Source of the DNA: Bordetella pertussis 18323
GTDB taxonomy: Bacteria > Pseudomonadota > Gammaproteobacteria > Burkholderiales > Burkholderiaceae_B
Assembly (NCBI RefSeq): GCF_000306945.1
Contig: NC_018518.1
Location: 1,736,001-1,800,000, forward strand
Direction: 5' to 3'
DNA: 64,000 nt
Shown piece after piece: positions 18,783-29,493 of the stretch (position 1 is the first letter of the stretch; each line of letters begins with the position of its first letter). The position numbers and the translations under genes were made by a program. The notes beneath the pieces were generated by a model, which did not search any database, had not been told where the DNA came from, and was given only the letters and a program-made list of their open reading frames with translations.

Positions 18783-19924
18783 GTGAAGCAGCAGCTGAAG
18801 ATCGCATTGGCCATGGCGGCCATCGTGGGCGCCGCGGGCGCGCTGGGCGCCTATGTGGCGAGCACGTCCGATGCGCCGCAGGCGCCCGCAGTCAGGCTGG
18901 GCGACGGCAAGGCGGGGCCGGCCGACATGGCCTGGATTCCCGGCCACCAGTTCCTCATGGGCAATGACCACAAGCTGTCGCAGCCCAATGAGCGGCCCGC
19001 GCACCAGGTGCGGGTCAGCGGGTTCTGGATGGACGTGCACGACGTCACCAACGCGCAGTTCCGTCGCTTCGTGCAAGCCACCGGCTACCTGACGACCGCC
19101 GAACGCAAGCCGCGCTGGGAAGACCTGCGGCCGCAGCTGCCACCCGGCACGCCGCGTCCGGACGACAGCCAGCTGGTGCCCGGCGCCATGGTGTTCGTGG
19201 GCACCCAGAGCGAGGTCTCGCTGCGCGACTATTCGCGCTGGTGGCGCTTCGTTCCGGGCGCCAGCTGGCGCCATCCGCAAGGGCCGGGCAGCGGCATCGA
19301 CGGCAAGGACGACCACCCGGTCGTGCAAGTGTCGTACGGAGACGCGCAAGCGTATGCCCGCTGGGCCGGCAAGCGCCGCCCACCGAGGCCGAATGGGAAT
19401 TCGCCGCGCGCGGCGGGCTGGAGCAGGCCACCTACACCTGGGGCGACGAGCTGCTGCCGCAGGGCCAGGCCATGGCCAACATCTGGGATACCCGCCAGCA
19501 GCAGCCGTTTCCGGTCGTCAAGGACGAGAAAGTGCAGGTTGGCACGACGCCGGTGGGCAGCTTCGCGCCCAATGGCTATGGCCTTTACGACATGGCCGGC
19601 AATGTGTGGCAATGGACGGCCGACTGGTACCGGGCCGACGCGTTCCGGATCCAGGCCCAGTACCGCGAACCCCCGCTCGATCCGGCCGGCCCCGCCGACA
19701 GTTTCGACCCGGACGACGGCAATGTGCCGGCCGCCGCGCCCAAGCGCGTGACGCGCGGCGGTTCCTTCCTGTGCAGCGACACCTATTGCATCAGCTACCG
19801 CGCCAGCGCGCGGCGGGGCACCGATCCGCTCAATCCCATGTCGCACCTGGGCTTTCGAACGGTGATGACGCCCGAGCAATGGAAGCTGGCCCAGGCCCGC
19901 CAAGGCCGCGTCGCCAGCCGCTGA
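18783..19924 (+). pseudogene. Formylglycine-generating enzyme (sulfatase-modifying factor), frameshifted
   Basis: The first frame (18783-19376) encodes a signal anchor, then WIPGHQFLMGND, FWMDVHDVTNAQFRRFV and VVQVSYGDAQAYARWAGKR. The second frame continues exactly with PTEAEWEFAARGGLEQATY, NGYGLYDMAGNVWQWT and RVTRGGSFLCSDTYC. The family sequence KRLPTEAEWEF requires CTG where the DNA has CG at 19377-19378, so one base is missing. The C-terminal pair C-x4-C matches the catalytic cysteines of true FGEs. Repaired length would be 380 residues. FGE converts the sulfatase active-site Cys to formylglycine; a sulfatase lies eight genes downstream. A sequencing error cannot be excluded. Confidence 0.9.
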
Positions 19925-19979
19925 GCCGGCGCGCGCCGGTCGCCGGCGCGGGCCGTTTCGGATACACACAGGAGCATGC

Positions 19980-20948
19980 ATGGCCAATCGTGATGGCATT
20001 GTGGCGTTGGAACAGGCGGTGTCCGCGGCGGTGCTGGGGCAGGCGGCGGTGATCCGCCATGTGCTGGTCGCCCTGCTGGCCGACGGCCACGTATTGCTCG
20101 AAAGCCTGCCGGGCCTGGCCAAGACGCGCACGGTCAAGGCGCTGGCGGCGCACCTGGACGCGACCATGCGGCGCATCCAGTTCACGCCCGATCTGCTGCC
20201 TTCGGACATCACCGGCGCCGACGTGCTGCAGCAGGACGCCGACGGCCGCCAGCGCATCGAATTCCAGCAGGGGCCGCTGTTCGGCAACCTGGTGCTGGCC
20301 GACGAGATCAACCGCGCGCCGGCCAAGGTGCAATCGGCCCTGCTGGAGGCGATGGAAGAGCGGCAGATCACGGTGGGCGGGGTGACGCGGCCGATGGCGC
20401 CGCTGTTCATGGTGCTGGCCACCCAGAACCCCATCGAGCAGGAGGGCACGTATCCGCTGCCGGAAGCGCAGATGGACCGTTTCCTGATGAAGATCCGGCT
20501 GGATTATCCGGCCGCCGACGACGAGATCGCGATGCTGGCCTTGCTGCGCGCCGCGCCCCAGCCCGGCGCGGCCGGCGCGACGCGGCTCGCGCAGGAGGAA
20601 TTGTTCGCCTGCCGGGACGCGGCGGCCGCCCTGTATGTGGCGCCGGCGGTCGACCGCTACATCGTGGACCTGGTCAACGCGACGCGGCGGCCGGCCGACT
20701 ACGACGCCGAGCTGGGCCGCTGGATACAGATCGGCGCCAGCCCGCGCGGCGCCATCGCGCTGGACCGCGCGGCGCGCGCGCATGGCTGGCTGGCCGGCGC
20801 CGACTTCAGTTCGCCCGACGATGTGCGCGCCGTGGCGCATCCCGTGCTGCGCCATCGCCTGCACCTGTCGTACGACGCGGTGGCCGACGGCGTCACGGCC
20901 GAACAGGTCATCGACCGGCTGCTGGACACCGTGGCCGTGCCCGCCTAG
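19980..20948 (+). CDS. MoxR-family AAA+ ATPase
   Basis: The 322-residue ATPase has Walker A at 41-49 (ESLPGLAKT, the MoxR variant), Walker B LVLADEINRAPAK, and sensor 1 in MVLATQNPIEQEGTYPLPEAQMDRF. MoxR ATPases act as chaperones with VWA-domain partners in assembling metalloenzymes or envelope complexes. It starts 55 bases after the FGE gene with AGGAG 6 bases before ATG and leads a tightly spaced run: 8 bases to the DUF58 gene, then overlapping genes. Confidence 0.92.
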   Translation: MANRDGIVALEQAVSAAVLGQAAVIRHVLVALLADGHVLLESLPGLAKTRTVKALAAHLDATMRRIQFTPDLLPSDITGADVLQQDADGRQRIEFQQGPLFGNLVLADEINRAPAKVQSALLEAMEERQITVGGVTRPMAPLFMVLATQNPIEQEGTYPLPEAQMDRFLMKIRLDYPAADDEIAMLALLRAAPQPGAAGATRLAQEELFACRDAAAALYVAPAVDRYIVDLVNATRRPADYDAELGRWIQIGASPRGAIALDRAARAHGWLAGADFSSPDDVRAVAHPVLRHRLHLSYDAVADGVTAEQVIDRLLDTVAVPA

Positions 20949-20956
20949 GAACGCCG

Positions 20957-28942: not shown

Positions 28943-29020
28943 GCGCGGGCGGGCGCGGGCGGGCCCCGCGCCCGCTTGCGTCGCGCACGCCATGGGCATG
29001 TCTTTTACGGATCACTCGAC

Positions 29021-29478
29021 ATGAGCAGTACACCCTTGCGGGCCGGGCGCGCGGCGGCGCCGCCGCGCGCCGAAGCGCGGCCGCTGGCCGGACTGTGGGC
29101 GCCGGCCCTGTTGCTGGCGCTGTCCGGCACCGCGGCGCTGATATTCCAGATCCTGTGGATCAAGCAGTTGTCGCTGATCGTCGGCGTGGAAGTGCACGCC
29201 ATCGCGCTGGCGCTCAGCGCCTTCTTCCTGGGACTGGCGGCCGGCGGCTGGTGGCTGGGGCGCCGGGCCGACCGCAGCCTGCGCCCGCTGCGCCTGTACG
29301 CGGCCATCGAGGCCGGCGTGGCGGTCCTGGCGCTGGCGGTCACGCTGGCGCTGGCGCGCGCCGCGCCGCTCTTCGTGCAGGGCGAGCAGTACAGTCCCTG
29401 GCTGGCCTGGCTGGCGGTGCTGCTGCTGGTGGGCGCCGCGCCGTTTCTCATGGGCGGCACCTTGCCGGTGCTACTGCG
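29021..29478 (+). pseudogene. Spermidine-synthase-like membrane protein, N-terminal fragment
   Basis: About 153 residues remain of a fused transporter-like/spermidine-synthase protein: a first helix LLLALSGTAALIFQILWIKQL, LSAFFLGLAAGGWWLGRRAD, and two more helices ending FLMGGTLPVLLR, all typical of this family's N-terminal membrane part. The methyltransferase-like C-terminal domain is missing: sequence switches at 29479 to 15 bases of IS481 right end. It follows the sulfatase gene by 78 bases and was probably the last member of the cluster. Confidence 0.85.
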
Positions 29479-29493
29479 TATTGACAGTTCACA
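29479..29493 (+). mobile_element. 15-bp remnant of an IS481 right end
   Basis: TATTGACAGTTCACA is identical to the last 15 bases of every complete IS481 here, and is followed by GCTAGC and then a complete IS481. It marks a former copy in direct orientation whose body has been deleted together with the end of the upstream gene. Confidence 0.85.

What the first reader, a model, noticed from the sequence alone, without database searches (positions are those of the whole stretch)
18783..29493. Candidate sulfatase-maturation and envelope system: FGE, MoxR, DUF58, VWA proteins, BatD, HAD lipoprotein, sulfatase, membrane protein
Nine co-oriented genes, many overlapping, place a complete MoxR-Bat-type AAA+/VWA complex between a formylglycine-generating enzyme and its probable substrate, a signal-peptide sulfatase with C90-T-A-G-R. 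MoxR/VWA pairs are known as metalloenzyme or envelope chaperones. The order suggests that the complex helps activate, metallate or deliver the sulfatase, with a lipoprotein phosphatase acting alongside. I know of no described pathway that joins these parts; it is worth treating as one unit.
Basis: partly seen in the sequence, partly recalled or inferred. Interest (0 to 1): 0.75.

Follow-up and report, generated by a model that had tools for sequence, protein, structure and literature searches.

The report
Sulfatase with a dedicated ATPase helper
A family of exported sulfate-removing enzymes is found, in distantly related bacteria and in many different gene orders, beside its own branch of an ATP-driven MoxR/VWA chaperone machine, which suggests an undescribed helper system for sulfatases; the copy read here is a damaged one.

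Summary
The gene order is real, but the copy in this window (a Bordetella near B. bronchiseptica, rich in insertion sequences) is decaying: FGE lies in two frames, DUF4381 and the first VWA gene are one ORF, and the last membrane protein is cut off at an insertion sequence. Of 80 named loci of this CTAGR sulfatase family, 50 carry at least three of MoxR, DUF58, VWA, VWA-TPR and BatD within 10 kb, in at least ten gene orders. MoxR+DUF58 trees put the sulfatase-linked modules in one clade (SH-aLRT 98-100), apart from generic modules; 0 of 32 generic modules read had a sulfatase nearby. In even samples of 150 Pseudomonadota and 250 same-order genomes, the dedicated module was found in 10 genomes, at all 11 places within 6 kb of the sulfatase, and in no genome without a sulfatase hit. 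The converse fails: many genomes have the sulfatase without the module. FGE is not the constant partner. Best reading: a dedicated, Mxa-like trans-envelope chaperone that folds, calcium-loads or activates an exported formylglycine sulfatase. The client is well supported, the biochemical step inferred. My searches found no paper describing it.

The parts
18783..19385 (+). FGE, first piece (frame 1; Pfam FGE positions 3-113), with an N-terminal membrane anchor
19379..19924 (+). FGE, second piece (another frame; Pfam positions 113-254), with the C-x4-C active-site motif
   Evidence: motif read in the sequence, compared with solved FGE (ortholog)
19980..20948 (+). MoxR-type AAA+ ATPase (Walker A SLPGLAKT)
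   Evidence: tree
20957..21898 (+). DUF58 protein
   Evidence: tree; 470 bits to the linked-clade profile
21895..23382 (+). DUF4381 and BatA-type VWA protein as one ORF (separate genes in L020)
23373..24887 (+). VWA+TPR (BatB-type) protein
24884..26230 (+). BatD
26203..27267 (+). HAD-superfamily protein (DNDGT motif) with a lipobox-like signal
27317..28942 (+). arylsulfatase-like formylglycine sulfatase, CTAGR motif at residues 90-94, D49 D50 D306 N307 as probable Ca2+ ligands
   Evidence: ligand positions by comparison with PMC5066984
29012..29493 (+). N-terminal stub of a fused MFS/spermidine-synthase-like membrane protein
29494..30550 (+). insertion sequence (transposase 29597-30547) that ends the membrane protein gene; one of six copies in the window

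Best explanation
The genes are a remnant of a conserved locus for an exported, probably calcium-dependent formylglycine sulfatase and a chaperone dedicated to it. A distinct clade of the MoxR-Bat machine (cytosolic MoxR plus DUF58; membrane-anchored DUF4381; two membrane proteins whose VWA domains should face the periplasm; BatD) uses ATP in the cytosol to remodel the sulfatase on the periplasmic side after export. The step I think most likely is loading of the active-site Ca2+ and/or final folding, as the Mxa proteins are thought to do for periplasmic methanol dehydrogenase (recalled). Formylglycine itself is made by whichever maturase the lineage has: membrane-anchored FGE, cytosolic FGE or anSME. 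Shown here: families, linkage, separate clade, conserved putative metal ligands, variable maturase. Inferred: topology (charge rule), contact with the sulfatase, the Ca2+ step. In the window's own genome the unit is probably not functional.
For: Linkage in 50 of 80 named loci, in at least ten gene orders, one with the module split around the sulfatase. One clade of linked modules: 47 linked against 32 generic rows, 46 against 29 with Bacteroidota controls. 0 of 32 generic modules near a sulfatase. Dedicated module in 10 genomes of two even samples, all 11 loci within 6 kb of a sulfatase hit, none in the 138 and 232 genomes without a hit. 16 of 26 genomes with an unlinked sulfatase have a dedicated module elsewhere. 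The module stays while the maturase varies. D49, D50, D306, N307 invariant in nine sulfatases. MoxR/VWA pairs insert metal in NorQD (PMC9976466, PMC13036017, passages).
Against: 15 of 18 sulfatase genomes in the order sample, 4 of 12 in the phylum sample and 10 of 26 have no dedicated module found; absence is scattered on the sulfatase tree. 9 of 17 further dedicated modules had no sulfatase in the stretch read. The HAD and MFS/spermidine-synthase-like genes are also linked (40 and 29 of 50) and could be the client. Nothing here tests Ca2+ or contact. In Rhizobiales and Paraburkholderia rows the second VWA protein lacks a clear MIDAS motif.
Confidence: 0.6

Rival explanations
1. The module serves the maturation step itself: it holds or unfolds the sulfatase so that FGE can reach the cysteine (the FGE-centred version of the first reader's idea).
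For: FGE labelled in 22 of 50 linked named loci; membrane-anchored in the Burkholderiales rows; in G126 an anSME gene lies between module and sulfatase.
Against: FGE is just as often labelled near sulfatases without the module (11 of 28). The linked lineages use anchored FGE, unanchored FGE, anSME or no recognised maturase, and cytosolic maturases would act before export.
Confidence: 0.12
2. The module serves another product of the locus (the MFS/spermidine-synthase-like membrane protein or the HAD protein) or the envelope in general; the sulfatase is only a pathway partner.
For: The MFS-like gene is labelled in 29 of 50 linked but 1 of 28 unlinked named loci; in A. kerstersii (L172) FGE-module-HAD-MFS stand without the sulfatase, which lies elsewhere in the genome (L027); L181 has module and MFS-like gene without sulfatase in the stretch read.
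Against: The MFS-like gene was not labelled in the Vibrio, Shewanella, Paracoccus, Bacteroidota and most Rhizobiales linked loci, where the sulfatase stays.
Confidence: 0.15
3. The genes merely travel together (horizontal transfer of a catabolic island) with no functional contact.
For: Patchy distribution: the sulfatase is in 4 of 15 same-genus genomes, own included, and BatD in exactly the same four; insertion sequences flank the window's copy.
Against: One clade across Bacteroidota and Pseudomonadota, with many reorderings that keep the parts together, including the order of Ralstonia L071 and Cupriavidus L074 in which the module is split around the sulfatase.
Confidence: 0.05

Closest known systems
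Mxa accessory genes of calcium-dependent methanol dehydrogenase (mxaR/MoxR, mxaS, mxaA, C, K, L, D)
   Same: A MoxR-type ATPase with a DUF58-like protein, VWA proteins and membrane partners beside a periplasmic Ca2+ enzyme (composition recalled; MxaFI as a periplasmic calcium enzyme in PMC8999231 and MxaC/MxaL as maturation/assembly proteins in PMC12482762, passages seen).
   Different: The neighbour here is a formylglycine sulfatase. No methanol dehydrogenase gene was seen in the labelled loci; homology of individual Mxa proteins was not tested.
Bat operons (MoxR-DUF58-BatA-BatB-BatD)
   Same: Same families in the same order.
   Different: The sulfatase-linked modules are a clade apart from the generic modules of the same genomes; the 32 generic modules read had no sulfatase nearby.
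NorQ/NorD, CbbQ/CbbO, RavA/ViaA (MoxR/VWA chaperone pairs)
   Same: MoxR ATPase with VWA partners; NorQD inserts iron into its client (PMC9976466, PMC13036017, passages).
   Different: In those pairs the VWA protein is thought to be cytosolic (NorD; PMC9976466 passage); here the VWA domains appear periplasmic (charge rule) and the supposed client is exported.
Known sulfatase maturation systems (FGE; anSME)
   Same: FGE with both active-site cysteines in 37 of 38 relatives examined; anSME beside module and sulfatase in G126.
   Different: Neither described system includes a MoxR/VWA module (recalled; none in the listings).

Membership tests
MoxR/VWA AAA+ chaperone systems | MoxR-type AAA+ ATPase with Walker A and B | tested here: met
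   AAA_3 206 bits; Walker B in 61 of 61 linked rows; Walker A S/GLPG[LT]AKT in 60 of 61
MoxR/VWA AAA+ chaperone systems | VWA partner with MIDAS motif | tested here: met
   First VWA protein 59 of 59 linked rows; second VWA protein only partly: strict pattern in 31 of 55 ORFs, and sampled misses (L058, L063, L055) lack it
MoxR/VWA AAA+ chaperone systems | ATP-dependent remodelling of a client | not testable with these tools
   needs experiment
Bat operon | MoxR-DUF58-VWA-VWA-BatD gene set | tested here: met
   NCBIfam BatA (Leptospira) model matched far below its cut-off (124 against 380 bits)
Bat operon | role in aerotolerance or stress | not testable with these tools
   none sought
Formylglycine (S1) sulfatases | [CS]-x-[PA]-x-R motif and D,D,D,N calcium ligands | tested here: met
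   CTAGR in 112 of 114 high-scoring ORFs; D49, D50, D306, N307 invariant in A1; ligands by comparison with PMC5066984
FGE (window copy) | intact reading frame | tested here: not met
   two frames
FGE (relatives) | C-x4-C copper site | tested here: met
   37 of 38; best solved match a formylglycine-generating enzyme, 6s07
Mxa system | next to mxaF methanol dehydrogenase | tested here: not met
   the neighbour is a sulfatase; no methanol dehydrogenase profile was run, but the window's genes were all identified
Mxa system | homology of parts to MxaA, MxaC, MxaK, MxaL | not tested
   no Mxa sequences were fetched

The most novel reading that the evidence does not exclude
Six Pseudomonas genomes (named: G458, G459, G460; unnamed but placed among Pseudomonas by the trees or by group code: G118, G122, G205) hold the dedicated module beside a Cys-type CTAGR sulfatase, yet have no FGE-superfamily protein with the C-x4-C site and no anSME over the curated cut-off. 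The boldest reading not excluded is that there the module, with the HAD and MFS/spermidine-synthase-like proteins, takes part in the unidentified 'third sulfatase maturation system' proposed from E. coli mutants (Benjdia 2007, seen only as a citation in PMC6189696), or makes formylglycine unnecessary. Against it: G045 has a sulfatase of this family with neither module nor recognised maturase, and DUF4381 rang in none of the 14 control genomes, E. coli being one of the controls (named).
Probability: 0.06. Interest if true: 0.92.

Novelty: new variant of a known kind. Interest (0 to 1): 0.7.

Why it matters
MoxR/VWA machines are known for few clients, and what most Bat operons work on is unknown. 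A separate Bat clade whose regular neighbour is one enzyme family gives a testable client, joins sulfatase biology to AAA+ chaperones, and suggests that some sulfatases need ATP-driven help after export, which would also matter for making active recombinant sulfatases. It also singles out Pseudomonas lineages that have this sulfatase but no recognised formylglycine maker.

Tried and rejected
Rejected: an intact FGE here (two frames); FGE as the module's constant partner; chance nearness of generic modules to sulfatases (0 of 32; one of the 32, L138, has an FGE-superfamily gene); bpMoxR conflict systems (PF20030 52.7 bits, but AAA_3 206 bits).

Led nowhere: the plasmid search gave only short MoxR matches. 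Literature: MoxR+BatD+sulfatase 0 papers; MoxR+sulfatase+VWA 3 and MoxR+formylglycine 4, of which I saw a passage of PMC7159879, on effector domains, and otherwise listings; sulfatase/FGE with VWA/AAA 6 and arylsulfatase+MoxR 3, listings only. The primary mxa paper is not held. Splitting the sulfatases into module-dependent and -independent clades failed. No structure was predicted.

Limits. One search was given 26 of the 28 unlinked loci (L087, L103 left out) plus L038 and L098. Several loci are cut by contig ends. The 300-bit line between dedicated and generic DUF58 was drawn after seeing the gap (279 to 304; 272 to 317) and the trees. One search left out 14 linked loci as near-copies and loci without a full-length MoxR or DUF58 ORF; one search used 29 of the linked rows, 26 of the 32 generic rows (L124 dropped as a long branch) and all 20 new ones. 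The 32 generic loci are 32 of the 70 DUF4381 matches that have no sulfatase hit beside them. My first motif test on the FGE-superfamily hits used too narrow a pattern; the wide one gave the same answer: 1 true FGE, in G461.

Full report
OBSERVATION. The window lies in a 4.04 Mb single-contig genome. The nearest named sulfatase is from Bordetella bronchiseptica, 98% identical, and the window holds six near-identical insertion sequences, so I take it for a close, IS-rich relative; no tool names the organism. The only other FGE-superfamily gene found in the genome is EgtB, itself in two frames, and no anSME match was found in it. The sulfatase here thus has no intact known maturase.

CONSERVATION. 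In the genus sample the sulfatase and this BatD occur in exactly the same 4 of 15 genomes, own included. Three relatives keep the locus with full-length genes in broad outline (L018, L019, L020; in L020 the VWA-TPR protein is read as two ORFs and the MFS-like gene is not beside it), and one of these genomes has a second FGE-SULF-MFS locus without the module (L021). Among 80 named loci found by the sulfatase alignment in a collection of one genome per species, 50 have three or more of MoxR, DUF58, VWA-A, VWA-TPR and BatD within 10 kb, 2 have fewer and 28 none. The 50 include Achromobacter, Pseudomonas, Pandoraea, Cupriavidus, Ralstonia, Paraburkholderia, Rhizobium, Bradyrhizobium, Nitrobacter, Brucella, Paracoccus, Vibrio, Photobacterium, Shewanella, Mucilaginibacter and Cerina. 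Gene order differs (22 label strings, at least ten truly different orders): module-HAD-SULF-MFS; module divergent from FGE-HAD-SULF-MFS; SULF-module-FGE-HAD; HAD-FGE-SULF-MFS-module; SULF-module; SULF-MFS-HAD-FGE-module; and VWA-VWA-BatD-FGE-HAD-SULF-MFS-MoxR-DUF58, in which the module is split around the sulfatase. The parts stay together while the order changes.

CONTROLS. (a) In an even sample of 150 Pseudomonadota the sulfatase profile (E up to 1e-100) hits 12 genomes, and DUF4381, a marker of such modules, 71 genomes at 79 places. Nine of the 79 lie beside a sulfatase hit. Of the other 70 I read 32, in stretches of 14 to 20 kb: none shows a sulfatase. (b) MoxR+DUF58 trees: all 47 linked rows, window included, on one side of a branch with full support and all 32 generic rows on the other; repeated with 17 further modules and three generic modules from genomes of Bacteroidota and Vicinamibacteria loci, 46 against 29, support 98. 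The linked module of Cerina (L098) and the generic module of the same genome (L191) fall on opposite sides. These are quick trees with SH-aLRT support only. (c) With a DUF58 profile of the linked clade the 150-genome sample gives 9 dedicated loci in 8 genomes, all 9 within 6 kb of a sulfatase hit, and none in the 138 genomes without a hit. A 250-genome sample of the order gives 3 genomes, 3 of 3 beside the sulfatase, none in the 232 without a hit. Own genome is in both samples, so 10 distinct genomes and 11 loci. Fisher test 9e-11 and 3e-4; without own genome 1e-9 and 4e-3; these ignore kinship. (d) Of 26 genomes whose sulfatase locus lacked a module, 16 had a dedicated module elsewhere; of 17 such modules read, from 15 of the 16 genomes, 8 had a sulfatase in the stretch and 9 not.

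WHAT SPEAKS AGAINST. The sulfatase does not come with the module everywhere: no dedicated module was found in 15 of 18 sulfatase genomes of the order sample (sulfatases of 344 to 916 bits, against 980 to 1088 for the three linked), in 4 of 12 of the phylum sample, and in 10 of 26, one of them with a 75% identical sulfatase (L051). On the sulfatase tree absence is scattered (12 rows, 10 changes). Either the need is conditional, or other modules stand in, or the link is less direct.

MATURASE. FGE relatives carry both active-site cysteines in 37 of 38, and the closest solved structure to the G001 ortholog is a formylglycine-generating enzyme. By a hydropathy rule (not a dedicated predictor), 16 of 18 rows that I take for Burkholderiales have an N-terminal membrane segment (L088 just misses the threshold, L070 was not resolved), so the catalytic domain should be periplasmic; 18 other rows, mostly Rhizobiales, have none, and two Planctomycete rows do. 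Vibrio and Shewanella genomes have anSME (G126, G454, G456, G462-G464), and the four of them tested show no FGE with the cysteine site (G126, G454, G456, G462); in G126 an anSME gene lies between module and sulfatase. Of eight Pseudomonas genomes tested for both, one has FGE (G461), one anSME (G453) and six neither (G118, G122, G205, G458, G459, G460); G118 and G122 are single-contig genomes. G045, which has the sulfatase but no module, also shows neither. The module stays while the maturase changes, which argues that its client is the sulfatase rather than FGE.

MECHANISM. By the positive-inside rule the VWA domain of the first VWA protein, the BatD body, the HAD protein, the sulfatase and (here) FGE lie outside the inner membrane, while MoxR, DUF58, the DUF4381 domain and the basic BatD tail lie inside (and reading of the sequence). 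Work done in the cytosol would have to pass across the membrane to a periplasmic client. MoxR/VWA pairs insert metal in NorQD (PMC9976466 and PMC13036017, passages). The best analogue is the mxa set for calcium-dependent methanol dehydrogenase (composition and calcium role recalled; passages of PMC8999231 and PMC12482762 say only that MxaFI is a periplasmic calcium enzyme and that MxaC and MxaL work in its maturation). S1 sulfatases are calcium enzymes with four ligand residues (PMC5066984, passages), and the matching positions are invariant in the nine-sequence alignment. Calcium loading or final folding after export is my choice; it is inference.

NOVELTY. Ten full-text searches were made, five of them on this combination; none of the titles and abstracts listed or passages read names a sulfatase-linked MoxR/Bat module. 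Subscription papers, among them the MoxR reviews of 2006 and 2012, were not available. A MoxR/VWA chaperone with a new, exported client is a new variant of a known kind.

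Noticed in passing
L026:9383-10803 (G000:C1 about 2985382-2986802): The genome's EgtB (ergothioneine biosynthesis) gene is also spread over two reading frames.
   Followed up: partly
window 5223-6278, 7310-8363, 13514-14576, 29494-30550, 38491-39543, 57184-58230: Six copies of one insertion sequence of about 1.05 kb, 99.5% identical or more, in 64 kb.
   Followed up: no
linked-clade MoxR proteins, window 19980-20948 included: 28 of 61 linked MoxR rows have a serine in place of the first Walker A glycine (SLPGLAKT); the 32 generic rows all have glycine.
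   Followed up: partly
L058, L063, L055 (VWA-TPR proteins): The second VWA protein has lost a clear MIDAS motif in some lineages while the first VWA protein kept it in 59 of 59 rows.
   Followed up: partly
L018:4470-7001 and relatives: A fused MFS/spermidine-synthase-like protein of about 840 residues was labelled in 29 of 50 linked but 1 of 28 unlinked named sulfatase loci; its role is unknown.
   Followed up: partly
G118, G122, G205, G458, G459, G460: Pseudomonas genomes with a Cys-type CTAGR sulfatase but no recognised FGE or anSME.
   Followed up: partly
L024 (G017): FGE and the HAD protein stand beside a different sulfatase subfamily (35% identical) without any module in the stretch, so FGE-HAD pairs can stand with other sulfatases.
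   Followed up: no
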